In this document: positions 3,040 to 56,276 of the stretch, piece by piece | Layout of the letters: each line of letters begins with the position of its first letter | Position numbering within the stretch: the stretch's first letter is position 1 | Source of the DNA: Ptychodera flava | Lineage: Eukaryota; Hemichordata; Enteropneusta; Ptychoderidae | Assembly: GCF_041260155.1 (NCBI RefSeq) | Contig: NC_091931.1 | Span: 33,183,541-33,247,540, forward strand | Length of the DNA: 64,000 bases | Direction of reading: 5' to 3' | Translations under genes and position numbers: made by a program | Notes under the pieces: generated by a model | Told to the model about the DNA's origin: nothing | The model's input: the letters and a program-made list of their open reading frames with translations, nothing else | The model's database searches: none

Positions 3040-3428
3040 TAGCAGCTTGTAAGCGGGCATGAAATTCCTACCTAGACCTCACAGTTTCATTGGGCAAGGA
3101 TACAGTCATGGTATCCGCCCACACTGCGACTGCTGTCATACCGCCGTGGTGTCAGGTTGCAAACTATATCCTCACGTTTTGCTTTTCTGCAAAGACTGAT
3201 CGATGGCCTCTTGTATTTGATTGTGTGTACCCATGCATCCCTGCTCTGCTGCGTCCAGAGCCAATCATTAGGTGGCATTGGTCATCGCTGACTTCCCTGT
3301 TCAGTCTTTGCATCGCGTGTAGCAACCGTTGCATTCAGTCGTTGCGAGCTCTTGGACCGATGAGTTGTCAGACTAGTGGACGCTTCTGCTACAGCTGTCA
3401 GGACAGTTTGTCAACAAGTCGTGTCAGA
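3040..3428 (+). promoter_or_regulatory. CpG-richer putative promoter / 5' UTR of the MTUS-like gene
   Basis: From about 3040 to 3510 the sequence is clearly richer in G+C and CpG (about 20 CpGs in 3090-3510) than the AT-rich DNA on both sides. It ends in a plausible first coding exon. No TATA box stands out. The reading frame of the first exon is open back to about 3090 and contains further ATGs (3108, 3360), but their translation is Cys- and aromatic-rich and looks like noncoding DNA, so I treat it as 5' UTR. The transcription start cannot be placed from sequence alone. Confidence 0.4.
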
Positions 3429-3509
3429 ATGGGCAGTAACAGCATGGGTTTTGGCTTTGACGCAGAACTCTTGACTGTCCAGCGGCGGGAGTCAGCTAAA
3501 GCTAATCAG
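3429..3509 (+). CDS. Candidate first coding exon of the MTUS-like gene
   Basis: The ATG at 3429 sits in a strong Kozak setting (A at -3, G at +4) and opens [15 protein letters not shown] and a further 12 residues. The exon ends at CAG|GTTAGG with the donor at 3510, in phase 0, which is the phase needed by the exon starting at 17220. The CpG-rich setting supports a first exon. In-frame ATGs at 3108 and 3360 are alternatives but have poorer context or an implausible translation. The link across the 13.7-kb intron is inferred from phase only; another small exon or a different first exon could exist. Confidence 0.5.
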
Positions 3510-15500: not shown

Positions 15501-18500
15501 AAAACGTGTCTTAAATAGGTATGAGTAACTTGTGACTCATCAGGTCGTCTCATTTCAGAGCCAAGAAGATTGTCTCCAAGCAGACATTGCAACAATATTG
15601 TTTTAAGAGGGTGCCTTGGAAAATCGATGAACATATCCATGGTTTTTAAAACATGAAACAGTCTTGAGTTAAATTGATATGAATGTAAATGGTACTAGTC
15701 TTAGAAGTGTAAGGAGTAACTGATGTAAGGACAATATTCAGCCACCTTGCAGTTTCTAGTGAAATACACTCTTGTATACACTAACTGATGTAAGGACAAT
15801 ATTCAGCCACCTTGCAGTTTCTAGTGAAATACACTCAGATATTAAATGCACTAAATGTCACAGTTTCTTTACCAAAAAATTATTTTCTGTATTGCAAAAT
15901 AATTGTATGAGCATGGAACTTATTATTCTATCATAAGTTTTTTTGCAGTATCATATCATGTACATCATATCAGTATGTAAATCGGTGACATCTGTAGCCT
16001 ACGGTATTTGACTTGCATATGACATGTCTAGTATAATACACTTGTTCAGTCTATAGATATACTGCAAATTTGTAACTGACACTTTAACTTTCCACTTACT
16101 CAGTTTAATATACAAAGTATATCTACGCATTTCCAATTTGAAAATGAAACAAATCTTCAGTTTGATACATATAATAGTGTTTTACATATAATATTTTTGA
16201 TCTGTGCATCTTTTCACGTACATGCTTATTCCATTGCTTGAATTTAAAGTTGAATTTATAAAGATTACCCCAATCCTCTTCATATGTATCCCCTGTTTAC
16301 TTACAGTGCTTCTACGGCAAATCAGATATTTCAACCGGGAAATTAAATGTCCGGACAGGTTACTCTGACATAATGGATATCTTGAGTCTTCTATTGATTG
16401 CATGGCATTTTTACTTCAGTGACTCTCACAGATAGAATCTTTCATAACGGCACCGGTACAATGTATGTTCAGTGATGAAATACAAAGAACATGTCAATGA
16501 TAACTGAAATGAATTTAAATGTTGGGCACAGGATTATATCAACAAAAGTTGCAGTGCGTCATGTCCAAAAATACTTGGTACAGTAGATAGATTAACTCTA
16601 ATAATGTAGCATTTAACAGAAGATCATACTATTCAAACTGATTCTACCGGTATCAACTTCTCATCAATACTTGTCACCATGCATTGTTTTACCTCTTAAT
16701 AGCCGTTTTCTTGTAAAATTAAACAATGTTTCGCCTTTATTATCTCTCACGCTTCAAGATCAATGATGGAACATGCATGTATTCCAAAAAGGACTGTCAG
16801 AAGATTAATGCTCAAAAATTTATATATATAGGCATAAAGTTTTGCATGAAGGGGTGGTTTTGTCTAAAACAGTTCATATTCTGTGTCCACCAAACTTTTT
16901 TATAATTTTGTTTTGATTGTTTTAAAGAGAGTATGATGGATTTGATGGAAGAGTTGGAGTAGTGACGCCTTTATTCTAAATTTAATGTTAATTGCTATCT
17001 TTTTAATATGACAGTGTTTTTTAATATGATACTCAAATTCTTTTGATTTTTTCATATTGACACAGACACTGGTACACATCCTAGGGTTGGATGGAGTTTT
17101 ACGAGTTTAAATACAACATGGAAGTTTGTAAAGCTACATTTATAAAGTAAACACACTAGTATATTAGCTAAAATACAATGAAAATTAATATTTGTTTCCC
17201 TTTTTCTCTCTGATTTCAGGCCACTTCTCAACCAGAAAGTCGACTTCCTTCCCGTAAGTCTAGGAGATCTCTTCTGCCAGCACCAAAGACATTTGTGAAC
17301 CCCAATCTACGGACACTATCATCACCAGAACCTGTGCAGACTTCTTTGGCACCATCATCCAGCAGCAGTGCCAGTGACAGCGCCCTCTATGTCCTTCAAA
17401 TTGGTGACAGAGTCTCTGTATCAGGATACAAGACTGGCACATTGAAATTTAAAGGACAAACCACTTTTGCTCAGGGAGAGTGGTATGGTGTGGCCCTTGA
17501 TGAACCAGCAGGCAAGCACAACGGTTGCATAGATGGTGTGCAGTATTTCCAGTGTCAGGGAAAGCATGGAATATTCGTACCTGTCCATAAAATCCAGCCA
17601 CTGAACTCACAAACAGTCTCATATGCCAGCACACCCCCTGCCTTCACTGGCGAAAGTTCTTCCAACTCAAATACCTCAGCAGATTCGGCATCTTCCTATC
17701 CAAAGCAACAGAAAAGGGGAAAACTCTGAGTAGAATTCTACCACCCAGAGTATCAAGTGGGAAAACAACTACAGCCATTCCCTCCAAATTGAGCAGACCA
17801 AAGAATTTGCCTTCCTTGGGGAAATCTGGAAGCAACTCAATTACCACAAAAGTTAACAAAGACGGAAAGAAAATCGAAGCTTACTCATTAACCTCACCTC
17901 AAACATCAACTCAGGCAAACTCACCCAGCCCTGAATCTTTCAACATTTCTGGCAGTAAGCTTTTTCAACCCAGGAAGATAAGTCCTGTCAAAGATCAAAT
18001 TGTTTCACCGTGCTGGTCAGCAAACAACCCTGCACCTGTAAATACAGCTACAGTGACCAAGAAAACAACACGATTGCCCAAAATACAGGGCAGAAAGTCC
18101 ATTCTGCCAAAAGTAAATACAGATCCAAATTCCACATTCACTTTCGAGGATAGCAAATTCGAAAACAAGTTCACGCTACCTCCAACCAGTCCCAGCTGTC
18201 AACACTCACTGTCAGAGGATGCAGATGACATTGGCTCTCTAGAATTAGATGATCATGAAGTTCAAAGTACAACTCATGATGACAGTGCTGCTGAAGTGAA
18301 TGGAGTCCCCCTGGAAATTTGCATCACAAATATCTTCAACGGTGCTGATGAAAATTTGAACGAGACTTTTGAAATTACTGTGAAAAAGAAATTGGTGGAG
18401 GAGGCACATAGTGTGCAGGCTCTTGATGGAACTTTCACGTTGGCCACAGAAGAGACTCCTGTTGCATTGAACAGAACCTTTGATGCGCAGAACACAACTT

Positions 18501-21500
18501 TTAATACGATGACGCATTGACCGACAAAACCGAAGCACTGATACCAGTGGGGCCTTCTTCACCAATACAACCGGTTGTGGAGATCCCAAAATTACCAGAA
18601 GACAACAACACCCCTGATTTGCAGCTAACTAATTCTGACCCCTTCTCTTTCAAAGAAATTCAAACTGAAAGCACACCAGATCATCTCAGTAAGGTGTCCT
18701 CTCAGAAATGGGATCGCTGTGACATATCAGTCGCAGGGGAATCAAAAATCAGCAACATATCACAAAAACTAGCCAACGTCAACCTACCAACTGAGTCCTC
18801 TCCCCTGTGTACCAGTCGACTGACAGACACCCAGCTGCAAGAGTCTTTCAATGACGAGTGCCTTCTGCCTGAGGAACTAGCTGTTATTGAGCAAGTCAGA
18901 GCAGCAGAGAAAAGAATTCTTAGTGAAGCCCTCTGTCAGGAAGATTTTCAACTCAAAGAAGGTATCAAAAATACAGAATTTGAATCCAGTTCAGAAAACC
19001 GTCTACCAGTAGATTTAGAAGAACAAGTTTTTGACACTGGACAGGTATCATTAATTGACTTTGAAGTAGGTGAACTGCCATCTCCTACTGTAGGTTTCTT
19101 ACACCCAAATATAGACACTTCAACTCCTGCCCAAAACCCTCGTTTCACCTCTGTTCTGGCCGCAGAGATGTCAGCAGCCAACGCTGATGGACCTGACAAT
19201 GTACAAGAAGAAAAGATAACAAACGAGTACCCAAACAGTGATGCAATTCTGACAGAGGAAAAATCAGAGATGGAAGAATCAGAGTCCGGGAAAAAGTCTG
19301 CATTATGCCTACTTGGAAACAGCATGGAAATACCAGTTGACATCATTGAGAGCCATGGGGGAGGCAGCGAGCCAAATGAAAACCAAATGAAGAGGGCGCC
19401 AAGTAAAAGTGACCTACAGAGTGATTTGATTAGTGAGGCAGAGGCTTGTGAACAGGATACTACTGAATCTGAACACCCTGCAGAAGTTACTGATTTTGGA
19501 GATACTGAAATCGATCACCAGCAGGCTTTGTCTGGCAGGGATGCATCCATCGAGGACACCACTCTGCATTTGGCAGGAGCAACAAAGCTGCAACACACCG
19601 ACAGCCTGGAGGTCAGTGTGACAGAATCTGTTGAATTGAATGGAGACGTTGAATATTTTGCTCCTGCAGAGAAAGTTTCAAGTGTGAATGGAGATGTCTC
19701 CACGATTGCACCAGATGATAAATTACCCTCAGTCAAAAACCAGGACAAGAAATCTCCTGCTGATCAGCCAAGCGCTGCTGAATCAGATACAAAAATCACT
19801 GAAAATGGAGAAAAGGAAGAATGCCATCCGTCTGGCAAAGAAGGATATATTGGACATGACCCACATGATATCAAGACAAATCAAAAATCTCAGGAAATGG
19901 TGATGCCCAACCAGATAAAACAAAGGAATCTGTCAGTATGCCAACAAAAACTGATTCACCAAAAAAGAAATCTGATGTCACTGCTGCAAAGTCATCAAAA
20001 GTAGTGATCCCTCCATTGAAGCTGGGAACAGGTGACAAAAAGACAAATGGTACAGACAGGAATATAGTCTCACCTCAAAGGAGTTTTTCCAGCTCCTCTT
20101 CCATATCAAGAAGCAGGGAGAGGCTGACTTCTCCCACTGGAAGAAGAGGGTCTCTCGACTCGAGTCGTGGCACATCACCGGCAAGGAGCAGTAGCGAGAG
20201 CCTACCAAAGAAGACTTACACGCCGTCCAGTTGGCGGACTGACAAACCTTCATCACCTCCAGAGTCCAAAGACAGGGGAGTTCTATCCCCTAGAAGAAGA
20301 GCAGATTTGCAGATCTTGCCACCGAAGCTGAATTTTGCAGCAGTGAAAAGCAAGATAGACACTGGCAGGAAGCTAGGTGCCAAGAGAGATGACAAGGATG
20401 GGGATGACAGCTTTCTCAAGCCTGAACCTCTCAGTCAGTCTTTTCCACCTGCCAAGAGTGCTGATTCCGCAGAGAGATCAAGTACTTTCTCCAATAAGCT
20501 GTCAAAATTTGAGATTTCAAGTGCAACCTCTAAAGGTAAGAATTGACTATCATAAGTCAGGAACTTCAGTCTATTTTAAAAACAAATTTTATTTCATTCA
20601 ATACGAATGAAACAGATACAGTACCTGCATTGTAAGTATAGGTTACCACAAATGTGTCTGTTGTCTCTTCTCCAGTCAAGCAAAATTCCTGATGTCTTTA
20701 CACACATCCACATCTGGTGGTTTGATATGTTTGAAGAACATATACTTAAAGACTCAGGAACTTTGAAAGTTGTATGTACCGTATGCTAGGGTCAGGGAAT
20801 GCAGGTAAATGGTTAAAGAACCCTATTAAAATGTTACTGTTCCCTGCCCGGTACATGTACAATACCTTTTGTGCACCAGAGGGAAGCCACGGTAACATGA
20901 CTTGGGAACCATGGTAACATTTACCGGTTTACCGTCCCTAACAAAACTGGTCTCATCTACACAAGAATGTTAGGGAAGCCTAACACCTTACAACAATCCA
21001 TTGCTTGGATTAATGGTTAACTATTGACACAATAACATCCATCTACATTTGCCTTGATGTGACAAAATGTACATCCAGTGAAAAAAGTTATTTGAATCAA
21101 GAAATCTATATTTATTGCACAGTCTGGGCTACTATGTTGATGACCATTGACAAACACCTGTTACATACCGGTATGTGTGTCATTGACCAGTGCTTGTTGT
21201 TTGATGTTTTAACACATGTACATGTAGTATACTTTATGTCTACATTGCTCATACTCAAGGAATATTTGACAGTAAATGACAGTGAAAATTTGGGTGTCAC
21301 TGATCCTGGTCTTGCTTTCTTAATGCTTCATTTTAAAGCCCCAATAGCTGCGAATTTTATGCATTATTTCCATAATTTTATTTTCAACCTAAAGTTAGTT
21401 TATGTAAATGTGCTAATTAAAGGACATGTGTAGAAGTATCGCCGCTTGCTGATTTGGACCATGGCTACACGTTTTGACAGGCTGAATAATAAACAGGTGC

Positions 21501-24500
21501 CGCACCCATAAAATGGCGCCCCCATGGAAAAGTACGAAAACACAGTATTTCCTGCACATACACATCGTGCTTATAAAAGAAACAAGCATGATGACATTTA
21601 CTTGAATGCACCACACACCTTGGCCAACATTTTATTGTTATAACCTTTATTTTCTCTGTCATATGGTCAGTTTTTAAAAATGGCGGGAAATCGAAAATGG
21701 TGTTAAAACGTTTGAATTTACATGCAACGTTCGACACTTATGACAGTGTTATACACTGTTTTAGTCTTAATGGGTCTCATTCAAAGAAAACTCTTGGAAA
21801 ACTGAGGATATTTTGAGATCGGTTTATCACGCATTCGCAGCTATTGGGGCTTAAGATTGTAATCAGATTTGATAGCCAGGTATTCATACTTTGTGAAACT
21901 TTTCATTTGACTCTGATATTTATTGACCTGTGAAAATGTGTAATAGTGTAAAAAGGAAACAAGCTGTTGTCCAGTTTGATGAGCAGTCATTCTAAATAAT
22001 GAAGACACCTTAGTTTGTAGATTTGATACCTGTCAAAATTTAATATTTATAGAGATTTTGCTTTACTCTCTACTAGTACAAGTAAAGCAAAACTCAGGAT
22101 GAGAAATTGCCTGCATTTCACTGTCAGCTGAACTGTTTTTTAAATGTACCCCATTCTTTATGTGTCATGAATCCAACTGTAGCTGTCTTGTCTTTTACTG
22201 TTGTTGTATACACATAGGTCAACCTGTGCCCAGTGCAAAACTCAAGGCCTTCATTGAGGGTAGTTCATTCTGGAATGAAATCCGAGGTACAGAGCCTCTT
22301 AATCTTCAAAATCCCATCACTGATCATCATAACACCAAAAAAAAGATAAATTCATAGCTGAATCTCCCTTGCTAATTCAGCTGCCTTGTTGACTGACACA
22401 ACTCAAAATACTAACTTGCTTGAAAACAGTCCACATCATCAAGACCTAGAATAGTTCCTACTCCTCTGCCGTGAATCTGGTGTAACCTATTTTAAACTTT
22501 GTCTGCAAGCCATTTCAAAATTTCTAACGCCTAGAATCTGACTCACACACCTTTTCTATTCTATCAAGATTTACAACTTAATGGCTCTGTGATTAAAATC
22601 TGGGGAAGTCAAAAGTGGAAAACCTCTCATGACTAAACACAAAAGTAGTTTTATCATTAGTGTAGTAAAACCACAAAGTGTATTGTAGTAGACCTAAAAC
22701 CAAAAAGCCTGTTTGAACTTGGCTCAAGTTTTTACGCAAGACAGCTTTAAACCAGAACAATTGAGCAGCTCTGTTATGGCTTGTGAAGGTCTCATCACTT
22801 TGTCTTCATCACTTCTTTTTCACAACCTGTCCACTTCATTTTATGCAGCACACAACACACAATGTCACAAACATTCTCTTTGCTCGTCTTTACCGCACAA
22901 TACACAATATTGCAAACATCAACTGTGTTGCTTTGTTAGATTTGTGATGTTCTTGTTCTGTGTGTGATAATTCATCTAAGTTTTGTTCACTGTGTGTCTT
23001 CAGTGTTGTACATCTTTTGTAATGCAAGGTAGGTAGATTTGTGAAAGCTTGACAAGTTTTGCTGTTTCATGAAAGTTGCATATGCAACCTCCAGCAGAGA
23101 GCAGCAAATCTATATTACTGCCATAAATATCATATTTGCATGCAGACCTCTGTCAGTGTTATTGCCACCTTCCTGTAAACTTAAAATACTCTGAAGATGT
23201 GTGCTGTGCTTAAACAGCTGTCAGTACTCTGTGCTGACCTTGACTCCTATGGCCTTATGGAGTGAACTACATTGCATGCTGATTACACCTTTTTGATCTG
23301 TTTGTTTAAAAGTTGCCGTGTTGTGCTCGCATTTTGTCTTTTTACTTGATCAATACAGAGTGTTACCCCTTGACATAACATCTCTGCCCCCTGAATGAAT
23401 CCCTGTGGCGTTTAATTCATTGATATTAGACTTAACACATTCACCCCTGTACCTTGTTTTGTTTCAATTGTTTATCAAAAGTCGGGTCAACACACCGGGA
23501 AAGATGGGCTGGATGTGAATGGGGTCAACTTATGTGTTACAATGAGAACTTCGCTTGCTGTGGTTTTGTTTGATTGGTTAATCAGACATCATCATTGGCA
23601 TCTTCAGACTCACTCCCATTCATTACGTGCATCCTTCTTAAATTAAACCACACCACATCTCCATTATCTCATATACGTCAGGTTCAAAGCCAATCAACAG
23701 GACAACGCAGGCCCTGCGGAGCAACGCCGCCACCACCAAGACAGGAGAGAGACGAGGTAGTTCCTCCAGCATTGCATCTGACATATCACAGAAATCAGAC
23801 ATATCACGTGGGTCCAGGAGATCATCCACATCCTCACCCAGGGGTGCAATAGGTGGTGGTGCTAACAATCCCATTCCTCTTAGACTTCAAAGTAAGGAAT
23901 GCATCTCACTTGCATGGCCTTCTTGGTCTCTTATTCCTTTCATTTCGGTGTTCCTTATTGACTGTGGTTGTTGTTTGTGTTTGATAAATAACTATACTGG
24001 AGTGAAGTGTTGTGATACCCTGACTTTACCAGTAGATTGATTTCATGAGTTCATGCATGGTTCAGTGATGATGCATGCAGCATGTAGGTAATGCATAGTC
24101 TTTGATTTAACGTCTACTCAGTGAGCGAGTGAATGTCTTTGTGTAAGAGAACAAACACAGTGAGAGGGGGGAGTGGTAAGGAGGGTGTTAGGCATATGTT
24201 AATGTAAAAAAACCCAAGGAATTATGTACAATGTAAATTGTAATGCTACAGATTTACCCACCTTTTCTACTTACCCGTCCAAGATGTTACAGTAACAACA
24301 ATTTTACTTCAGACAAACCCATATTAGATCTATGGTGCCACAAATCATGGAGTGTATAGATGGGAAGTAGATAGATGTTAGGTAGATGATGTAGTTTCAA
24401 GAATGTGTTATGAAAATAGCCAGAAGCTACTGATTCAGAAATACATGTATGCAGAAAAAAGGCAGGTGTCTTCACCATCACATTGGCCTCAACTACATGT

Positions 24501-48500: not shown

Positions 48501-51500
48501 GCTGGATGCATTTTCTGGGCCAGTGTTGTCACAAAAACTTCAGGTGCTGCAGAAAGAGATAGAGAATGCACGACAGTTGATAGGTAAGCTAACTCATTGA
48601 CGTTACAGGTAACCATAGCGTGGATCAGGTATTTGTATTTACATTCTGCCTTGTGTGGCATAAAGCAATGCCAGAATGAAATAGAGGTTTCATACAAAAT
48701 GCATGTGTTTCCTTCAGTTTTGTTTTACTAATAATGCTTTCAAGTGTTGACATAATTTGATAACATGGTGAGACTAGACTTTGTCAAACTTCAATAAGCC
48801 AATTTACATTTTGAGCAGTTCATATAATTGACAGAGAAATCACATTCCAATACAAAAAAGTCAATGCTATCAAACTTAATATGACCAGACTGCTTTGCAA
48901 CCCACATAGTCCTAAGGTAACATATATGTAATAGAGTGTACAGAAACATTGTCTGACACATCTGAGAAATAGGATAATGTGATTGACATCTTAGCCACTT
49001 TGTATCTGTGAAAATACAGAACTGTGATGATCATAAGTTATGTAATATTCTGCATAAAATACTCAAGCTGTCAGTAAGTTTTCAAGGTGATTTAGTACCA
49101 GTACAACTTACAGGTAATAGTTTAAAAACCAAAGCATTTACATAGTGTAGCTAATTCACTTTGATAAACTAAACTAATCAAAGATACATTGTTTAATATT
49201 ATGAAAGTTTGAAATTTGGAAAAAATATTCAAAACTTGAAATTTGAAATAAATGACAATTTGAAAAACATTAAAAACTTACATACCTCCCGTTTGTATTT
49301 GCAGGCGTAGACAAGCATATTAAAGGTATACTGTCACCTGTTCCAATTTTGCCACAGTTACCATGGAAAGAGAAAATCTAACCAATCACAGATTTTAAGC
49401 GGGTGGCGGCTTTTTAAAAATAGCGCCCTCACGTGGGCAATTTGAATACCAAGGAACGCCCCTTTGACCATATATAGGCATATTTAGATTACAGGTGACT
49501 GTATACCTTTAATGTGCGTATTTGTTGGTTTACAGCAAAACAGGAAAAGGAATTGTCAGACCTGCACACAGAGAAGACAACACTTTCAGAGAAGTATGAA
49601 GATGAAGTGGACAAGTTGAAGACAGAGACAGATGAACTGAAGGAGCAACACAAGAAAGAGATAGAAGCTCTGACGACAAAGTTGAACGACGAACATATGA
49701 CAAACCTTGAAACTCTTGAAGATAACTTGAAGAAAAATCATGATGAAGAAAAAGAAAGCTTGTTAGAAAAGCATTCACAAGAATTAGTAAAAGGTACAAA
49801 TAAACTCATCAATCTACTCCTATTCTCTTTCCAGTTCCCATCCACCGTGCAGTTTCCAACGTGTCTCAGTGGCATTGTCATCAACCACAAAAGGTCACAA
49901 AGTCAGACAATGTACACAGTGGTTTGCATTGAGCTTATAAAGGTACCTGGGGATAGTTAGTTACAGCTTACTGTCTGAAAACAATGTGTCTTCATAATAA
50001 CATTAAGCAAGATTCATCAAAAGTGACCCTTGAGAAATCTTTAATCTCCTACCCCAGAGGGTTTATTTTTCCATAGCTCTCCAATTACTTTACCTTTTTT
50101 ACTTCAATCCATTAACATTATTGAATTTCAAAGGAAACTAATTTGATTGTTGTTATTTCTTTACAGCGAGGTCAGATTATGCATCCAACCTTCAAAGAAT
50201 CAAAGCGCAACACAGGGAAGAGGTAGGCAGCATGCCTTTTTTCAGCCTATGTCTGCCTTTCTCAGTCTTGAGACCTTTGATCTATCATCATTACCCACAC
50301 ATTATAATAATCAGAGGTCTGCCACCTTTAAAATGCTGTCAGAGATATCTTCAAATTGTTTCTGATGAATACACATTCTCTAAAGGTTGCAATATTCTAT
50401 ACTTTTATCGTTTAGTTGTGTGTGTGCATGTGTGTGTGCATGTGTGCACGGACCACCTGTTCACAACATCACCAATTTCTCTTTAAAATTCAAATTTTTG
50501 AATATCAACATTATCAATCTTAATGTATATAAGAAAAACAGCTTCATTTGTCTCATTGCTGCAGTATATAGTTGCTATTTATCTCATTAAAGATATTTTG
50601 AATATTTTCACTTTATGTAAATGACTGAATTGTTTGTATTAATGGACAGATAAAAGACAAGGATCAGGTTACTAAATAGTGTCAATCATTGAAAAATAAT
50701 ATTGAGAATCAAAGCAATTTTCCCCATGCCTCAACCCAGTGTACAAAGTGATGAGTGACATTGCAACAAAATGATAATTTTCTCATTTCAGTTATCTGAA
50801 CTGACAAGAATACAGAAGCTAACGCTTGAAGAAACCGTTGATGAATACAAAGAAAAGCTGTCCAAGCAGTCTTCAGAACACCAACAGCTTGTGGACGGCA
50901 TGACCCAAGAATACACCTCGAAAATGAAAAAACTTACAACTGACTTTGAGACCAAGAACCGTACGCTTCAGGTAAGCTGCCTTGAAGACATGCCAGGCAC
51001 CATGTAAACTGTGTTCTTGGGCAAATCATCTATAGAACACATTCTGTTTGATAATGAATCGTCAATCATTGGATTTGCTAACTTACTCATTTCAATACAC
51101 TTTTAGTATCATATGGAAGGTATTCTAAGAACTTGTACATTTAGTATATGTGGTATTCTAAGAACTTGTGCATTTAGCATGTGCTAAAAGAATGCTCAGT
51201 TCAGTAGGGTTTTTCCCTTATCTGTTATTATGAACAGATCTGACCAAGAGTCAGAAATATTATGTGTATGTGTACTTCTGACATTCATAGTTACATTTCC
51301 TCGTACATATGGCGTATTCCGGATGTTGCTAAGATGTATCAAGGTATTAGTGTTACCGCACTTGATAATTTTCAAATCATTTTTAATCATGAGAAATGTT
51401 GAGTCCGGTAATTTACGTCTAACCTTCTACCAGCTTGGATGTACAGCATTTCTTCTTTGTCTCTCAGTCACATCATTTGGTGTTACTCTGCTCACAAACA

Positions 51501-54500
51501 CTTATTGTTTCCTTCAGGATGAAGTAGAAACATTGACTTTCCAGTGTCAGAACTACAAAGACAGAGTGAAAACATTGGAAGAAAACTTGCACAGAGATGT
51601 TGATGTTAAGCTACAGGTAAGTTGCAATCTATAAAATCTGGAACAAATTCCTTTCTTCGGCACACTTCCATATCAGGGCAATCTACTCTCTTGCATTCAG
51701 CGGCAAATGTATTCCCAACCCATCTAGCAAATCTGGTCATGACATTAAAAATATGTTTTAGCTTTGCTCTTTCACTCCTGTGTTGCGTATACCCTATACA
51801 GTTTTGTATATGTCCAAGCAGAACAAAGGAAAATAAAAAGAGTCCCTATCAAAGTTTACTAGTTCTTACACAAGTTATAGGGACTTATTGATTGGGTCAT
51901 GTGGATGCGTGCATCCTTACGTCCACAGAGATATCTCAGACATGCCCAGGTCTATTCCTTAAAACTTGGCAAAAGGATAATACGCTATGGCGTACATATG
52001 CACGTTGACTGTTTTTTTGACACTATCCGATATGGCAACCGGGCAGCCATTTTGTTTCCATTTTTAGCTCACATTTGGTTTTACCAATGTGAGTTTATCG
52101 TATAGGCTGAAGTCGATGGCGTCTGTATGTATGTGTGTATGTATGTATGTATGTATGTATGTATGTATGTATGTACGTACAGTATGTCCGTCAACATCAA
52201 AAACACGCAAACCGCTGCACGTTTCAGCTTGGTATTTGGTGTGTGGATGCATCCTGGGCTATAGATGGGATTTTGTTCAAATGAAGTCTGCATTGCCAAA
52301 ATTATGCAAATGAGCTTACAAAATGTGAAAATGGTTAAGAATTAATAACTCAAGAACCGCTTTTTTGATTGCTTTGAAAATTTGTGTGCAAGTACCTTAG
52401 GTGAACTTATACAGTTTTATGAATATTGTGCAGATATCCTTAATTTTGTATTTTTGCTGAATTTTTTTGTGATTTTTCTCATTTTCAGTAAAAATTCTTC
52501 TTCTCTGAAACCGCCAGCCCAATCGCTCTCAAATTTGGGTTGTCTCTTTGCAAGGGTGTTACTCTTCTAATTTGTTGAAATTATGACAAAATTGGGAAGA
52601 TTACTATTTTGTGCAATTTTGTCATTTTTGGTCAAAAAATCTTAGACAGTGTTTCCTTTTTAAAACCACTGGACAGACAGCTTTCATATCTGGTACACAG
52701 ACATACAGAGATGAGAATAGTTAGATATGTGGAAATTGTCCTGAAATATAAAAAATTGTATTTTTAAGACAATATTGTCATTTTTTGGTCAAGAAAACTT
52801 TATCTCAAAATTACTTGTTTGATAGCTTTGTAATTTGGTATAAAGTCCCTTGTTTGATAGCTTTGTAATTTGGTATAAAGTCCCGAAAGATGTTATTAGA
52901 TAAATTTTCTGCTCAAAGTGTTGGGAAACCCCAAAATTTGTATATTTTAGGTACTTTTCTCAGTTTGTGACCTTAAATGACCTACACCAACCCAGGATAT
53001 GTTGTGAGACAATTTTGAAGGCTGTGAACATAATTTTGTCATATTTGGTACCAATTTGTAGGAAAATTTGATCCAGAAAACAAAGCTGAGGTGATTTTTT
53101 TCATTTTGGACCAATTTTTGCAACTTTTCTATGTAAGACATACAAGAACTGATGAGAAATTTGGATCCAGGATAATTCCAGATGTTGTAATCACCGCCCA
53201 CAGTGAAGTGAAAGGCATTTCACTATCTGTAACTAACTTAAGTGCTGTTTACATTAGAATGATAACACTCATGGCATTAATTAAAAATCTCCAAGGTTGT
53301 AAATGTACTTCCTGTCATTTGGTCTTATGTAATACCAAGGGGTTGAACATTTGATATTCAGGAGGGGGTAGGGTCTAGAAGATCGATGATGCAGCATTAC
53401 TGTTTTACCAGATCCCTTGTGCATTTTTGCCCACTCCCACCTTTTCTTTTTTTATCAAGCCTTCTCTGTTTTTTGTTGTTATTTAGGATCTGCTTCTCCC
53501 ATTGCTATAGAAGTTGATATGCATGTTCCTAAAGATGACCTCCAGTACCTAAGTTGGAGACCTTATTGCTTTTGTCATTCTTGTTTTCTGGTTTAAATAT
53601 TTCTTGAATGGACCAATTCAAACCGAATGTGAGCACATAGTGTCCTTGACGGTATTTTTTCATGATTAGGATAACCCCATCCCCTTCCATATGTAGAGAT
53701 CCAACTTTGCCTTAAAAAGCAACACAGTTTTACCATCTTTATAGGAAGAAGTTTTGGCATGACAATTAAACTTGTGATCAAAATGCTTCAGTAGAGCTGT
53801 ATCCATGTCACCAACTTACTTCGTGATATGGTACTTGCCGAATGGCAATTTCACAATTGACTCTCCAAAAGATTTCAGTACTCAGTCAACCATATGTTAG
53901 TGATATTGCATTTTTTACTCCACAGTTGGCCCTAGCACCTTACAAAGATTTACAAGCGGAAGTTGAAAGTCTGAAATGTGTGTTGGAACTCAAACGAGTA
54001 GAAATGCAAGAACTCCGCTCCCAAAAGAATGAACTGTCAAAACAGGTAGGTACTTTCAGTTCATGTCTGGCAACAGTTTGCAAAGTTATTTTTAGTATCC
54101 TTCTTGTCATTACTGATGCTGAATCAATCAATCAATCAATAAATCTTTATTAACCATGACTGAGCAATTGACATTGCAGCAGTGACAAACACAGTACATC
54201 AATCAAAAAACATGACAAACTAAAAAGGTTAAAATACCAAACAGCACATCCAATAAGTAAAAATCACAGAGAGATAAAAGAAGTATATTTAAAAACTAGT
54301 TCAATCTATTCAGTTGACCAATAGCTCTGTTGATAAAAAGTGTTTGGTTCTATTGGTTTTAAAAGCCTGTACTCTGAAACGGCAGCCGGATGGTAGTAAG
54401 TCAAACTCGTTTTGTAGAGGGTGCTGAAACTTGGAATGTATGATGGAATTCCCCTTACGTAAAACATGTTTCTCGTACAAGTCAGTGGGGCCCACTTGTT

Positions 54501-56276
54501 GTTCTCCGATAATATTGCTGCAGACTTTAACTATCTTACTAATTCTGTTTCTGTTCTTAACATTTAAATTGCCATACCAGCAACCATTGAAAAAGTGCAA
54601 ATACTCTCAATAAAAGATTTATAAAATAACGTCATCAGAGACTTATTTACATTAGATTGGTTCAACTTCCTCAGAAAAACACACGTTGTTGACCTTTACT
54701 ACAAATAGCATCGACATTGTCATCCCAGCATAACTTATCATCTACTGTGGAGCCAAGATAATTGTACTTGCTGACTATCAAAGATTTACAAGCGGAAGTT
54801 GAAATGTTGATGCTGAATAACATAGAAGTATTAAATTTTTTAAAAGAAATTTTGAGAAGTTGAAGGTATTTTATTTGGCCTTTATTCTCAACTACAGCAG
54901 TAAGAATCCAGGATTACCAATGCCACACTTTTTGTGTAAAGTTTGAGAGTTCTCAAATGAAACACTGTCATTATTTTACACTGTTGTGGTTTTCTTTTCT
55001 GATCAGCTTGAGAAAATTCCAGAGATGGAAGAGACCATTAAGAAACTTGAAGCAAAGAATGAATCACTGAATGCTTCTTTAGAGAAGAAAGTAAGCTATG
55101 AGAGGTAAGCATATGTCACTTTTATTATCTTGCTGTTGTGCAACGTCTTCTCTTCTTTGTTGAGTTCCTCATCCTTAAATGGTAGTATACGCCTCGAAAG
55201 TGAAAGATTTAAACTTTTTCTCAAACTTACCTAATGAAACTTTCAATCAGTCTCTTACTAAATCAAGAACAAAATTTTGGGGGTCACCAAAAAAAATAAC
55301 TAAACATTTACTGATATTTGAAATGAAAACGGCTGCCATCCATGTGTTTGTCTACAGGGAAAATAAAATTTTTGATTTCAAAAAAGTAGACAGGGGAAAC
55401 TTTTCTTTCTCCAAGAGCTTTAAAATGAGCCCCACAAATGGTAGATCAGAAAAGAATTGTAAAAATTTGAGAGTCCTAACTAACATCAGTTCATTCTACC
55501 ATAATGTGAAATGTGCTTTAGGCCACACTTTTTCAGACACTCAACATTTTTCATTACTTTTCTGGTCTGCTGCTTGGCTAGACTCATTTTGGACATGGTG
55601 TAGTAGATAAAATTTTAAAGTTTTGTTTTTGTTTTAGTTCTTCACTGTACAATTATCACAGTTTACAGAGGCCATTTTTAATTTCAGATACTTCAGGGTA
55701 GTATTGTAACTATTTGGTAATTGGCGGTCTAACCCAAAAGAGAATGGTTTAATGTTTTCTAGAGTTTGAGCACAGCTTTAAACTTCATTGTGAGGTGTGT
55801 ATTTACTTGAAGGTAAAATCAAGCTGGACAGGTTATGTGCCATGTCAGTAGAGAATCACCATTGTCTTTCAAGGGAGTGCATATGTATTTGAATACTAGA
55901 AATCACACTGTATTAGATAATGACTGGACTGGTGTTAGAGACTTTCCAACTACTTCATTCGTGATTTTATTTGTATTCTGTCATCAGGCAACTCTCATCA
56001 GAGCATCTTGTATTGAGGGAGCACTTTGAGAAGGAAACTCAGGTCAACAAACGTCTGTCACGGGAGAATGAAGAGTTGGTCTGGAAGTTGCAGAATTCAG
56101 ACAGTGGTTCCCCGTTGACTGGCTTAACACCTAGCAGTACCAGATCAACCCTGTCCCCCTCACCAACTCACAGTCATCCCCACGGCCATCTCCATAGAGA
56201 CAGCCACACACTGTCAAGGTCAAGTTCAACAGACAGCCACGAGAGTGGCGTCTTTCCCCTCTCACCCTCACAGTAG
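3429..56276 (+). CDS. MTUS1/MTUS2-like: Spliced gene: CAP-Gly domain plus MTUS1/2-type coiled coil (microtubule-associated tumour suppressor family)
   Basis: Overall model; exons are listed separately. Proposed coding exons: 3429-3509, 17220-20535, (22218-22259 doubtful), 23682-23891, 24648-24689, 26045-26353, 27661-27768, (46695-46874/46916 doubtful), 47997-48232, 48502-48583, 49536-49793, 50167-50222, 50792-50971, 51518-51616, 53926-54045, 55007-55104, 55988-56276. All junction phases agree from 17220 to the stop. The product would be about 1,800 residues: a basic N-terminus, a CAP-Gly domain (about residues 86-155), a long acidic Ser/Thr-rich region, a basic Ser/Pro linker, then about 460 residues of coiled coil. 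Family: the C-terminal motifs [24 protein letters not shown] and the Leu-rich ESLK..LE.K element match my memory of human MTUS1 ([24 protein letters not shown]). Known MTUS proteins bind and stabilise microtubules, and MTUS2/TIP150 binds EB1. The CAP-Gly addition is unexpected. It is not a CLIP-170: there is no C-terminal zinc knuckle or EEY/F tail. Confidence 0.85.
3745..3780. other. Perfect 10-bp inverted repeat (hairpin)
   Basis: ATACGGTACT at 3745-3754 is exactly mirrored by AGTACCGTAT at 3771-3780 around a 16-nt GC-rich loop. It sits about 240 bp inside intron 1. Function unknown; may be a remnant of a small element. Confidence 0.6.
4900..5080 (+). repeat. Dispersed repeat family A, copy in intron 1
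   Basis: Shares GCTGCCATCC (4926), a purine-rich GGGGAAAATA block and CTCCAAGAGCTTTAAAATGA (5006) with the copy at 55310-55480, ending in GAGAGTCC. Same orientation as that copy. The short frames over it are repeat sequence, not gene. Confidence 0.6.
7751..7830. repeat. Dispersed short repeat family B, copy 2
   Basis: Same order of blocks as at 1516-1592 (TTCACCCCC, AATAGACAGGTCCACA, GGGCCAAACCATGGT). Family unknown. Confidence 0.55.
15717..15836. repeat. Perfect 55-bp tandem duplication, period 65
   Basis: 15717-15771 and 15782-15836 are identical over 55 bp (TAACTGATGTAAGGACAATA onward), separated by 10 bp. Perfect identity in an intron implies a very recent duplication or an assembly artefact. 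Confidence 0.9.
17220..20535 (+). CDS. Giant exon: CAP-Gly domain and acidic Ser/Thr-rich region
   Basis: Acceptor tttcag|GCC at 17219 (phase 0), donor AAAG|GTAAG at 20536 (phase 1). The CAP-Gly domain lies at about 17399-17608 and reads [20 protein letters not shown], then [24 protein letters not shown] and KHGIFVP. All core glycines and aromatics are present, but the usual GKNDG is GKHNG. After it come EB-binding-like sites TAIP (17771-17782) and KSILPK, repeated N-x-T-F motifs (18350-18505), long acidic stretches, and a basic Ser/Pro tail containing [13 protein letters not shown], which resembles human MTUS1 RPNFKNVKAKV. The coding potential runs through three frames: frame of 17220 to about 17722, next to about 18505, next to about 19890, last to 20535. 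Each step equals one missing base. Overlapping open frames and continuous composition argue for one exon with base losses in the assembly rather than a pseudogene. No GT-AG micro-introns fit. Confidence 0.85.
21336..21852. mobile_element. Non-autonomous DNA transposon with perfect 20-bp TIRs
   Basis: AAGCCCCAATAGCTGCGAAT at 21336-21355 is exactly mirrored at 21833-21852. The interior (about 480 bp) has no transposase-like frame, so it is a MITE or deletion derivative. TTAA occurs at both edges (21333-21336 and 21851-21854), but the two ends are offset by one A, so a TTAA target duplication of the piggyBac type is possible but not clean. The perfect TIRs suggest fairly recent insertion. Confidence 0.8.
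22218..22259 (+). CDS. Doubtful 42-nt phase 1-1 exon of the MTUS-like gene
   Basis: A pyrimidine-rich tract ends in cacatag|GT at 22217, and GAGG|GTAGTT follows at 22260. The 42 nt are in phase 1-1 and would insert [14 protein letters not shown]. It has the same length and phase as the convincing 24648 exon. The donor is mediocre and the peptide shows no family motif, so it may be chance. Confidence 0.3.
23682..23891 (+). CDS. Ser/Arg-rich linker exon of the MTUS-like gene
   Basis: Acceptor tacgtcag at 23681, donor CAAA|GTAAGG at 23892, 210 nt, phase 1-1, no stop in 70 codons. It encodes a basic, serine-rich stretch including [17 protein letters not shown] and [12 protein letters not shown]. 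The RxGSxxSIAS pattern resembles TGSTPSIASTHSELS that I remember from human MTUS1 just before its coiled coil, which supports both the exon and the family call. It is likely a disordered, phosphorylatable, microtubule-binding region. Confidence 0.85.
24648..24689 (+). CDS. 42-nt microexon encoding an SxIP EB-binding motif
   Basis: A T-rich tract ends in ggttag at 24647; the donor is AGTA|GTAAGT at 24690. The 42 nt are phase 1-1 and encode [13 protein letters not shown], with the first codon (Thr) and last codon (Ser) split across junctions. R-S-L-I-P-Y-R in a basic setting is a canonical SxIP motif, known to bind the EB-homology domain of EB1-family end-binding proteins. Because both ends are phase 1, inclusion or skipping leaves the frame intact: a natural switch for plus-end tracking. 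Confidence 0.75.
25749..25839. mobile_element. 91-bp MITE with 9-bp target-site duplication
   Basis: The 16-bp inverted ends GACTGAAAGATCTGTC (25752) and its mirror ending at 25838 differ at one base. The element is flanked by the direct repeat AGGTAAATA at 25740-25748 and 25840-25848. A 9-bp duplication is typical of Mutator-like elements. It is non-coding and sits in the intron before the 26045 exon. Confidence 0.7.
26045..26353 (+). CDS. Ser/Thr-rich linker exon with poly-Thr tract
   Basis: Acceptor ttttttgtag at 26044, donor GCTG|GTAAGA at 26354, 309 nt, phase 1-1. It encodes 103 residues of low-complexity Ser/Thr/Ala/Lys sequence: [20 protein letters not shown], a run of 11 threonines from an ACY triplet microsatellite (about 26155-26187), then [20 protein letters not shown]. 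The stretch is basic and disordered, like the microtubule-binding basic region upstream of the MTUS coiled coil. The triplet tract may vary in length between individuals. Confidence 0.85.
27661..27768 (+). CDS. Arg/Ser/Pro-rich linker exon of the MTUS-like gene
   Basis: Acceptor catttcacag at 27660, donor GCCG|GTGAGT at 27769, 108 nt, phase 1-1. It encodes a basic stretch including [20 protein letters not shown] and [11 protein letters not shown]. It spans a frame-preserving cassette between the poly-Thr exon and the coiled-coil exons. Its last base joins the 47997 exon to form an Asp codon. Confidence 0.8.
28341..28545. repeat. ATGAT pentanucleotide microsatellite, degenerate
   Basis: About 200 bp of ATGAT units drifting into TGTGA and ATGGT variants, ending in a pure GGTAT/GATAT run. 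It lies in the long intron. Array length is likely polymorphic. Confidence 0.9.
31684..32224. mobile_element. 541-bp foldback (snap-back) element with direct-repeat flanks
   Basis: The two halves are near-complete inverted copies. CACAGTCTCTTGG at 31684 is mirrored at the right end (to 32224). Internal blocks match too, for example ATCGCCCCATAGACGAGTGT near 31720 against its mirror near 32180, and AACGCTCGTTTC against GAAACGAGCGTT near the centre (about 31910 and 31975). Flanks share TGCAGAT (31677-31683 and 32225-32231), or 8 bp GTGCAGAT if the right end is set one base earlier. No transposase frame. An 8-bp duplication would suit hAT. The arms have diverged by several percent, so it is not very young. 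Confidence 0.85.
33235..33372. repeat. GC-rich patch with short inverted ends, possible MITE
   Basis: About 140 bp markedly richer in GC than its surroundings, starting TTTGCGTCGGTG and ending in a partial mirror (CGCTGACGCAAA). No target duplication is evident. Nature unknown. Confidence 0.3.
37630..37729. mobile_element. 100-bp GC-rich insert between 16-bp direct repeats
   Basis: AGGTATAAAATCATTC occurs at 37614-37629 and again at 37730-37745. The 100 bp between are about half G+C in an AT-rich intron. The arrangement looks like a target-site duplication around a short retroposed sequence. The reverse strand has AGCTCAGC and GGTTGCGAG stretches vaguely like tRNA-promoter boxes, but no poly(A) or full tRNA fold was seen, so a SINE identity is only a suggestion. 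Confidence 0.5.
38400..38495. repeat. GTTTT microsatellite and adjoining homopolymer C run
   Basis: TTTTG units at about 38400-38438 followed by a G run and, at about 38483-38494, a run of C. Simple sequence in the long intron; the translated frames across it on both strands are artefacts. Confidence 0.85.
43820..44000 (-). repeat. Dispersed repeat family A, reverse copy
   Basis: Read on the minus strand it aligns with the copies at 4900-5080 and 55310-55480: shared GCCA(C/T)CC.TGTGTT, then GAAAAT..A.TTTT, then CTCCA.GAGCTT.AAAATGA. Divergence is substantial (old copies). Family not identified; no TIRs defined. Confidence 0.55.
46695..46916 (+). CDS. Doubtful basic exon of the MTUS-like gene
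   Basis: A good acceptor (cctgttttcag) at 46694 opens a stop-free frame in phase 1. Two phase-1 donors fit: CATG|GTGTAA at 46875 and AAAG|GTATTC at 46917, giving 180 or 222 nt. The translation ends in a basic stretch ([20 protein letters not shown]). It could be another skippable linker exon, but no MTUS motif is seen and both donors are weak. Confidence 0.35.
47740..47788 (+). CDS. Candidate alternative first exon of a short coiled-coil isoform
   Basis: A strong acceptor-like tract (tttgtttcgttgcag) ends at 47739 and a donor GAATG|GTAAAC lies at 47789. Read in the only open phase (0 in, 1 out) it gives [16 protein letters not shown], but every upstream cassette exon ends in phase 1, so it cannot follow them. 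It could follow an unseen phase-0 exon, or supply its own start (ATG 47767) to an isoform MFSDSEN-D joined to the 47997 exon. Vertebrate MTUS1 is known to have short isoforms from internal promoters. Confidence 0.35.
47997..48232 (+). CDS. Start of the MTUS coiled-coil region
   Basis: Acceptor ttgctgttcag at 47996, donor GAAGAG|GTGAGT at 48233, 236 nt, phase 1 to 0. It encodes a basic Ser-rich head ([20 protein letters not shown]) and then [40 protein letters not shown]. The G..F.A...V......E spacing resembles the MTUS1 segment KQLLACGNTKFEALTVVIQH that begins the conserved coiled coil. Confidence 0.9.
48502..48583 (+). CDS. Coiled-coil exon ([12 protein letters not shown])
   Basis: Acceptor ttttgtccag at 48501, donor GATAG|GTAAGC at 48584, 82 nt, phase 0 to 1. 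Encodes [20 protein letters not shown] and ENARQLI with heptad-compatible leucines. Open in only one frame across both junctions. Confidence 0.85.
49324..49508. mobile_element. piggyBac-type MITE with TTAA target duplication
   Basis: TTAA|AGGTATACTGTCACCTGT on the left (TTAA at 49320-49323) is mirrored by ACAGGTGACTGTATACCT|TTAA on the right (TTAA at 49509-49512), with one mismatch in 18 bp. The element is 185 bp and has no coding capacity. It ends just 24 bp before the coding exon at 49536, so the exon's polypyrimidine tract lies between the MITE and the exon. Confidence 0.85.
49536..49793 (+). CDS. Highly charged coiled-coil exon
   Basis: Acceptor tggtttacag at 49535, donor AAAG|GTACAA at 49794, 258 nt, phase 1-1. 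It encodes 86 residues of Glu/Lys/Leu heptads ([34 protein letters not shown] and so on), matching the long charged coiled coil of MTUS1 in composition and position. Read-through past the donor loses this character at once. Confidence 0.9.
50167..50222 (+). CDS. Short coiled-coil exon
   Basis: Acceptor tttctttacag at 50166, donor GAAGAG|GTAGGC at 50223, 56 nt, phase 1 to 0. Encodes [19 protein letters not shown]. Phases bridge the 49536 and 50792 exons exactly. Confidence 0.85.
50792..50971 (+). CDS. Coiled-coil exon
   Basis: Acceptor tctcatttcag at 50791, donor CTTCAG|GTAAGC at 50972, 180 nt, phase 0-0. Encodes 60 residues beginning [20 protein letters not shown], all heptad-like with no proline or helix breaker except one Gly. 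Confidence 0.9.
51518..51616 (+). CDS. Coiled-coil exon
   Basis: Acceptor tgtttccttcag at 51517, donor CTACAG|GTAAGT at 51617, 99 nt, phase 0-0. Encodes [20 protein letters not shown] followed by [13 protein letters not shown]. Coiled-coil character. Confidence 0.9.
52124..52180. repeat. (GTAT)n microsatellite
   Basis: About 57 bp of GTAT units with one GTGT interruption, inside the dispersed element at about 52025-52330. Confidence 0.9.
52814..52883. repeat. Perfect 35-bp tandem duplication
   Basis: CTTGTTTGATAGCTTTGTAA and the next 15 bp occur twice back to back (52814-52848, 52849-52883) with no mismatch. Recent slippage or duplication. Confidence 0.9.
53926..54045 (+). CDS. Conserved MTUS coiled-coil exon ([15 protein letters not shown])
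   Basis: Acceptor ttttactccacag at 53925, donor AAACAG|GTAGGT at 54046, 120 nt, phase 0-0. It encodes [20 protein letters not shown] and [16 protein letters not shown]. Human MTUS1, as I recall it, has [20 protein letters not shown] at the matching place: same L-x-x-E-x-E-S-L-K-x-V-L-E-x-K pattern. A 26-bp piece of this exon (53943-53968) reappears at 54779-54804, next to a LINE insertion. Confidence 0.95.
54125..54807 (-). mobile_element. 5'-truncated non-LTR retrotransposon (LINE, CR1/L2/Rex1-like) in minus orientation
   Basis: On the minus strand, the end of a LINE reverse-transcriptase ORF can be read: [20 protein letters not shown] (54780 to about 54720), then in another frame [20 protein letters not shown] and [20 protein letters not shown] (54600-54310). 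These match the post-RT motifs (YLG, NRI.KIV, LLPSG.R.R) common in CR1/L2/Rex1-type LINEs. The 3' end has an AATAAA and a (TTGA)n tail at 54125-54140. An 11-bp target duplication TGATGCTGAAT flanks it (54114-54124 and 54808-54818). It is frame-broken and dead. Its 5' junction carries a copy of nearby exon sequence. Confidence 0.85.
55007..55104 (+). CDS. Coiled-coil exon ([20 protein letters not shown])
   Basis: Acceptor ttttctgatcag at 55006, donor GAGAG|GTAAGC at 55105, 98 nt, phase 0 to 2. Corresponds to the MTUS1 segment just before RQLSTEQ (K.MEKLV....L..KL..). Its last two bases complete an Arg codon with the final exon. Confidence 0.9.
55310..55480 (+). repeat. Dispersed repeat family A, copy in intron after the 55007 exon
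   Basis: GCTGCCATCC at 55332, CTCCAAGAGCTTTAAAATGA at 55409 and GAGAGTCC at 55470 occur in the same order and spacing as in the 4900-5080 copy. It explains the 143-codon open frame at 55179-55610, which has no splice or protein support. Confidence 0.6.
55988..56276 (+). CDS. Terminal coding exon with MTUS C-terminal signature
   Basis: Acceptor attctgtcatcag at 55987, phase 2. It encodes [40 protein letters not shown], then a Ser/Thr/His-rich tail ([20 protein letters not shown], later [10 protein letters not shown]) and stops at TAG 56274-56276. Human MTUS1 ends, from memory, [50 protein letters not shown]. This is the strongest family match in the window. No zinc knuckle or EEY/F end, which separates it from CLIP-170. 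Confidence 0.95.

What the first reader, a model, noticed from the sequence alone, without database searches (positions are those of the whole stretch)
17220..56276. CAP-Gly domain joined to an MTUS-type coiled coil in one gene
A complete CAP-Gly domain (about 17399-17608) lies in phase with downstream exons whose last segments match vertebrate MTUS1/2. From memory, vertebrate MTUS1 and MTUS2 have no CAP-Gly domain, and CLIP proteins that do have one end in a different tail. The sequence also keeps smaller MTUS1-like motifs between the two ends (Nx[12 protein letters not shown], RRGSxxSIAS), so the halves look like one old gene rather than two run together. It suggests MTUS was originally a CAP-Gly protein and vertebrates lost the domain, or that this lineage gained it.
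Basis: partly seen in the sequence, partly recalled or inferred. Interest (0 to 1): 0.85.

Follow-up and report, generated by a model that had tools for sequence, protein, structure and literature searches.

The report
CAP-Gly domain on MTUS microtubule gene
One animal gene in this window appears to join a CLIP-type microtubule-tip-binding domain to the coiled-coil end of the MTUS microtubule proteins, a pairing that human MTUS proteins are not known to have.

Summary
A complete CAP-Gly domain is encoded at 17400-17594 + (Pfam E 5.9e-25), closest among solved chains to CLIP-170/restin. The last nine exons align colinearly with human MTUS2 as recalled (score 509; best of 500 shuffles 135), far better than with a recalled CLIP-170 coil (502 vs 209). 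A coding scan found little else, but it misses short exons. Weaknesses: the large exon has three one-base frame breaks between the CAP-Gly and the rest, which I read as sequence errors; the 21.6-kb intron has no transcript support; the MTUS references are recalled. The claimed MTUS1-like motifs between the ends were not confirmed. Loss in vertebrates versus gain here cannot be decided: no animal genomes or proteomes were available. One review, seen in passages, puts human TIP150 (MTUS2) in the SxIP class, apart from CAP-Gly proteins.

The parts
17220..20535 (+). Large exon, phase-0 acceptor and phase-1 donor; holds the CAP-Gly domain and a long Ser/Pro/acidic region. Three one-base frame breaks (about 17697, 18507, 19871)
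17400..17594 (+). CAP-Gly domain, CLIP type, loop GKHNG in place of GKNDG
   Evidence: Pfam PF01302 E 5.9e-25; solved-chain matches led by restin/CLIP-170
17591..17726 (+). interval holding the first frame break (frame 0 to 2)
18505..18517 (+). interval holding the second frame break (frame 2 to 1)
19869..20001 (+). interval holding the third frame break (frame 1 to 0)
23682..23891 (+). exon 2 of the model, Ser/Arg-rich ([10 protein letters not shown]), phase 1-1
26045..26353 (+). exon 3, Ser/Thr/Ala-rich low complexity, phase 1-1
47997..48232 (+). exon 4, start of the MTUS-like region ([12 protein letters not shown]), phase 1-0
48502..48583 (+). exon 5, coiled-coil region, phase 0-1
49536..49793 (+). 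exon 6, coiled-coil region, phase 1-1
50167..50222 (+). exon 7, coiled-coil region, phase 1-0
50792..50971 (+). exon 8, coiled-coil region, phase 0-0
51518..51616 (+). exon 9 ([13 protein letters not shown] across its start), phase 0-0
53926..54045 (+). exon 10 (ALAPYKDL), phase 0-0
   Evidence: top-scoring of the 25 candidates printed
55988..56276 (+). exon 12, MTUS-type C terminus ([16 protein letters not shown]), phase 2 to stop

Best explanation
This is one animal gene, about 39 kb within the window, related by descent to vertebrate MTUS1/MTUS2 (and to fly toucan, which one paper pairs with MTUS2). It encodes a CLIP-type CAP-Gly domain near the N terminus, a long Ser/Pro/acidic middle that looks disordered, and the MTUS coiled coil and tail. 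Proposed mechanism (inferred): the coiled coil dimerises, pairing two CAP-Gly domains. These bind the EEY/F ends of EB proteins and of tyrosinated alpha-tubulin at growing microtubule ends, while basic Ser/Pro stretches and [ST]-x-[IL]-P motifs around the domain add EB or lattice contact. The protein would thus join the two EB-recruitment modes that vertebrates divide between CLIPs (CAP-Gly) and MTUS2/TIP150 (SxIP). Shown: the CAP-Gly, the exon chain, and the match of the tail to recalled MTUS sequences. Inferred: the transcript, the reading of the frame breaks as errors, the disorder, the dimer, the binding and the localisation.
For: CAP-Gly; best solved-chain matches are restin/CLIP-170 and CLIP-115 (40 of 68 residues identical to the restin chain 2e3h by my count of the printed alignment). 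Exon chain: 11 of 11 junctions compatible; two of these, around exon 11, were fixed by the search, and I placed the other sites by eye next to the open frames, so nine carry weight. Coding signal changes frame at the three breaks with no non-coding gap, as one exon with sequence errors would. MTUS tail: score 509 against recalled MTUS2 (best of 500 heptad-position shuffles 135) and 344 against recalled MTUS1 (best of 500: 139, 147); 502 against 209 for a recalled CLIP-170 coil, with coil-to-coil background 172. Both strands: no coding segment at or above the threshold between 26.4 and 47.9 kb, and 5 long ORFs tested there have no Pfam match above cut-off. EB-recruitment modes: PMC11471393 (TIP150 as SxIP protein) and PMC3513837 (CAP-Gly in CLIPs and p150), passages.
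Against: Three frame breaks lie between the CAP-Gly and exon 2, the first within 130 bases of the domain. The 21.6-kb intron 26354-47996 rests on splice sites and phase alone. An ATG at 47939 is in frame with exon 4, so a separate or alternative start is possible. Read-through of exon 3 meets a stop at 26371 and an AATAAA at 26484, though the window's plus strand holds 54 of them. The MTUS references were recalled, not fetched, and a search for their peptide strings in papers found none. The coding scan was trained on this gene and missed 5 of its 12 exons. No 5' coding exon with a start codon was established. No middle-region homology was found. Coil periodicity was marked in only 6 of 15 windows. 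The single-sequence fold of the CAP-Gly was of low confidence (mean pLDDT 44.6).
Confidence: 0.72

Rival explanations
1. Two neighbouring genes on one strand: a CAP-Gly protein ending near 26.4 kb and a separate MTUS gene starting near 47.9 kb or within the gap.
For: A 21.6-kb gap; an in-frame ATG at 47939 upstream of exon 4; read-through of exon 3 meets a stop at 26371, with AATAAA at 26484. Vertebrate MTUS1 is recalled to have internal promoters for short isoforms.
Against: Exon 3 ends in a phase-1 donor (gtaaga) and exon 4 begins at a phase-1 acceptor. The best-scoring coding segment at exon 4 begins at 47993, leaving 47939-47992 out. No terminal or first exon was seen between, though short ones would escape the scan. 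AATAAA is frequent here: 21 in 20536-47996.
Confidence: 0.15
2. The locus is a decaying copy (pseudogene or unpurged haplotype) whose frame breaks are real.
For: Three one-base frame breaks in 3.3 kb; the second lies in 18505-18517, an interval without a homopolymer of three or more.
Against: The other eleven exons translate without an internal stop and their splice sites are intact. The four coding pieces of the large exon, taken away from the breaks, have no stop in frame. All three breaks have the same sense, as long-read deletion errors tend to (general knowledge).
Confidence: 0.1
3. Small introns, not errors, account for the frame changes.
For: Introns of length 3n+2 would restore each frame, and some candidate acceptors have good pyrimidine tracts (13 of 16).
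Against: The Viterbi path leaves no non-coding gap. The 12 best candidate introns printed (4 per break, 35-400 bases) have donors matching only 3-5 of 9 consensus positions and would remove sequence that scores as coding.
Confidence: 0.03

Closest known systems
Vertebrate MTUS1 (ATIP) / MTUS2 (TIP150); CCDC69
   Same: C-terminal coiled coil and tail align colinearly with MTUS1 and MTUS2 (references recalled). CCDC69 was not compared
   Different: In the passages seen, TIP150 is an SxIP protein and ATIP3 binds EB1 by a non-canonical motif; no CAP-Gly is ascribed to either (PMC11471393; PMC4791250)
CLIP family (CLIP-170/restin, CLIP-115, CLIP3, CLIP4)
   Same: CAP-Gly of the same type in a Ser/Pro/basic N-terminal setting, followed by a coiled coil
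   Different: One CAP-Gly seen; the coil and tail are MTUS-like, not CLIP-like, and the one zinc-knuckle pattern tried is absent (CLIP sequence recalled). An unseen upstream exon could hold a second domain
Drosophila toucan (toc)
   Same: Listed as counterpart of MTUS2 in a table and named a mitotic spindle gene (PMC8384169, passages)

Membership tests
CAP-Gly domain (PF01302) | Match above the gathering score over the whole profile | tested here: met
   87.4 bits, cut-off 26.5, positions 1-65 of 65
CAP-Gly domain (PF01302) | GKNDG-type loop that binds EEY/F ends | tested here: inconclusive
   GKHNG here; chain 1whj (RIKEN cDNA 1700024K14) shows GKNNG. Binding not testable. Role of GKNDG: PMC13406575, passages
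MTUS family | Conserved C-terminal coiled coil and tail | tested here: met
   509 against best of 500 shuffles 135; 502 against 209 for a CLIP coil. Reference sequences recalled from memory, not fetched
MTUS family | Homology in the middle region | tested here: inconclusive
   0 of 8 segments clearly above shuffles against a recalled MTUS2 middle region. That such homology defines the family is not established, the reference is recalled, and MTUS1 was not tested
MTUS family | SxIP-like EB-binding motif | tested here: inconclusive
   SRLP and SLLP before the CAP-Gly, none in 18507-20534; TAIP after the CAP-Gly seen in the frame printed. No strict S-x-I-P was found there; exons 2-12 were not scanned; short motifs arise by chance
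CLIP family | CLIP coiled coil and zinc-knuckle tail | tested here: not met
   209 against 502 for MTUS2; no match to the knuckle pattern tried (CLIP sequence and pattern recalled)
CLIP family | Two tandem CAP-Gly domains (CLIP-170/115) | tested here: inconclusive
   One found in the exons examined; upstream exons not established

The most novel reading that the evidence does not exclude
MTUS proteins began as single-CAP-Gly members of the CLIP lineage that used both CAP-Gly and SxIP-like contacts with EB proteins. The vertebrate MTUS1/MTUS2 genes lost the CAP-Gly domain, so the present split between CLIP-type and SxIP-type plus-end trackers is partly derived.
Probability: 0.4. Interest if true: 0.65.

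Novelty: new variant of a known kind. Interest (0 to 1): 0.5.

Why it matters
If the gene is transcribed as one unit, it links two protein families that are treated as separate routes to the growing microtubule end. It would place the cancer-related MTUS genes near the CLIPs by descent and give a natural test of what the MTUS coil does when it carries a tip-binding domain of its own. The architecture may already sit unremarked in predicted animal proteomes, which I could not search.

Tried and rejected
Genome-wide search of the window's own assembly: none is held; the source animal was not identified. Scans for relatives with the tail and with the CAP-Gly exon in genome contigs and viral contigs: no confirmed relative in any of the 4. 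Rfam and tRNA scans of the window: nothing. Pfam on the spliced downstream protein: 3 families, all below their cut-offs. Solved chains with the last 168 residues: best E 0.6, chance. Single-sequence fold of the CAP-Gly: mean pLDDT 44.6, not used. Search of papers for MTUS1/MTUS2 peptide strings: 0 papers, so the recalled sequences stay unverified. The only partial check is that a paper places the SAIP motif of ATIP3 at Ile/Pro 1251-1252, which fits my recalled tail if the protein has 1270 residues (length recalled; '1270' does not occur in that paper). Candidate first exons with ATG and phase-0 donor upstream: 12 candidates, none convincing. One line (segment E_CAPb) was translated in the wrong frame and was not used. 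Ten long ORFs outside the model's exons (of 148 ORFs listed) against Pfam: 2 weak matches, DUF6594 E 0.0072 and CBM_14 E 0.091, both below cut-off; the other 8 none.

Full report
What is in the sequence. The stop-free frame 17214-17726 + encodes a complete CAP-Gly domain, matched stretch 17400-17594 (PF01302, 87.4 bits, E 5.9e-25). The best solved-chain matches are restin (CLIP-170), CLIP-115, a RIKEN cDNA protein (1whj) and CLIPR-59, with CEP350 and CLIP4 close behind; dynactin, KIF13B and the tubulin chaperones score lower. By my count of the alignment printed, 40 of 68 residues are identical to the restin chain 2e3h, which I recall as the second CAP-Gly of CLIP-170. The GKNDG loop that reads EEY/F ends (PMC13406575, passages) is GKHNG here.

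The exon model. The domain lies near the start of an exon from 17220 (phase-0 acceptor) to 20535 (phase-1 donor). Downstream on the same strand follow exons 23682-23891, 26045-26353, 47997-48232, 48502-48583, 49536-49793, 50167-50222, 50792-50971, 51518-51616, 53926-54045, 55007-55104 and 55988-56276, the last with a stop codon. All 11 junctions are phase-compatible, with AG and GT at every internal boundary. I placed the sites by eye next to the open frames. Exon 55007-55104 was found by asking for a phase-0 to phase-2 exon in the gap; it was the top of the 25 candidates printed, and its two junctions are therefore not independent evidence, which leaves nine.

The frame breaks. The large exon does not run in a single frame. 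A Viterbi path over the three coding frames and a non-coding state passes from frame 0 to 2 at 17697, 2 to 1 at 18507 and 1 to 0 at 19871, with no non-coding gap, under both penalties tried. The intervals allowed by stops are 17591-17726, 18505-18517 and 19869-20001. All are one base short (or two long), and together they cancel. The 12 candidate small introns printed have poor donors, 3-5 of 9 consensus positions, though some acceptors have good pyrimidine tracts. I read the breaks as sequence errors, but this is inference: the second interval has no homopolymer of three or more, and the link from the CAP-Gly to everything downstream crosses all three. The coding model was trained partly on this exon, away from the breaks.

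Is the tail MTUS? No Pfam family matched the spliced downstream protein above its cut-off, and no solved chain matched the last 168 residues better than E 0.6. I therefore compared the window with human MTUS1 and MTUS2 C-terminal regions recalled from memory. Exons 4-12 align with recalled MTUS2 over 351 residues, 125 identical, score 509; 500 shuffles that keep each residue's heptad position reached at most 135. Recalled MTUS1 gives 344 (111 of 324 identical), best of 500 shuffles 139, or 147 in a second set. On a slightly shorter segment a recalled CLIP-170 coil gives 209 against 502 for MTUS2; the recalled CLIP coil and MTUS2 give 172 with each other, the background for two coils. For the last 150 residues of that segment it is 89 against 341 (no shuffles there). 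Thus the tail is MTUS-like, not a generic coil and not a CLIP coil. In 6 of 15 windows of 56 residues the 3.5-residue hydrophobic periodicity was reached by fewer than 20 of 500 shuffles; in the other 9 it was not marked.

Is it one gene? A coding scan of both strands returned 12 segments at or above 14: 10 are pieces of this model in its frame, 1 is off-frame within exon 3, and 1 is a short minus-strand segment at 3285-3389; five simulated one-strand 64-kb sequences gave none. The scan was trained on this gene and missed five of its own short exons (5, 7, 9, 10, 11), so it cannot exclude a small exon in the 21.6-kb intron. Of ten long ORFs outside the model's exons, five of them in that intron, none had a Pfam match above cut-off. 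Against one gene: an ATG at 47939 is in frame with exon 4, and read-through of exon 3 meets a stop at 26371 and then AATAAA at 26484, although the window's plus strand holds 54 such hexamers, 21 of them in 20536-47996. An internal start would resemble the short ATIP isoforms of vertebrates (recalled) and would not exclude the long form.

The middle. Of 8 segments compared with a recalled MTUS2 middle region, the segment before the CAP-Gly was best, reached by 16 of 300 shuffles; the other seven were reached by 91 to 295 of 300. I could not test the MTUS1 half.

How it most likely works. CAP-Gly proteins bind the EEY motif of EB1, and SxIP proteins, TIP150 among them, bind the EB homology domain (PMC11471393, passages); a second review gives the same two modes and names CLIPs and p150 for CAP-Gly (PMC3513837, passages). 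MTUS2 encodes TIP150 (PMC12311101, passage). ATIP3 binds EB1 through a non-canonical motif although it carries an SxIP motif in its tail (PMC4791250, passages). The window protein has a CAP-Gly, [ST]-x-[IL]-P motifs before it (SRLP, SLLP) and after it (TAIP; frame printed), none of them a strict S-x-I-P, and a coil that should dimerise. A dimeric plus-end tracker with two kinds of EB contact is the natural reading; none of the binding was tested.

What is known. Seven searches of the paper library paired CAP-Gly with MTUS-family or CLIP names or domain architecture, one sought toucan/MTUS papers, one MTUS orthologs and one MTUS peptide strings. Three of these listed only part of the papers found: 20 of 49, 15 of 1,528 and 15 of 37. 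I opened 7 papers, by passages only. Neither the listings nor those passages describe a CAP-Gly-bearing MTUS protein; the library holds open-licence papers only. Fly toucan is given as the counterpart of MTUS2 in a table of PMC8384169; CCDC69 is placed in the MTUS family by PMC12311101. The combination may well be present in predicted animal proteomes, which were not available.

Verdict. A new variant of known kinds: the domain combination is probably real, it is not in the papers seen, and its evolutionary direction is open.

Noticed in passing
47939-47996: An ATG in frame with exon 4 directly upstream of its acceptor: a possible internal start for a short, coil-only isoform like ATIP1 (isoform recalled).
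   Followed up: partly
26353-26490: Read-through of exon 3 gives a stop at 26371 and AATAAA at 26484: a possible short CAP-Gly isoform without the coil.
   Followed up: partly
3429-3509: An ATG-started stretch with a phase-0 donor, among the best-scoring of 12 candidates for an upstream first coding exon; not convincing.
   Followed up: partly
3285-3389: Short minus-strand segment with a weak coding score (15.5), overlapping a 185-aa plus-strand ORF without Pfam match.
   Followed up: partly
17235-17300: [17 protein letters not shown] before the CAP-Gly resembles recalled MTUS2 stretches ([16 protein letters not shown]); the segment's score was reached by 16 of 300 shuffles, so only a hint.
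   Followed up: partly
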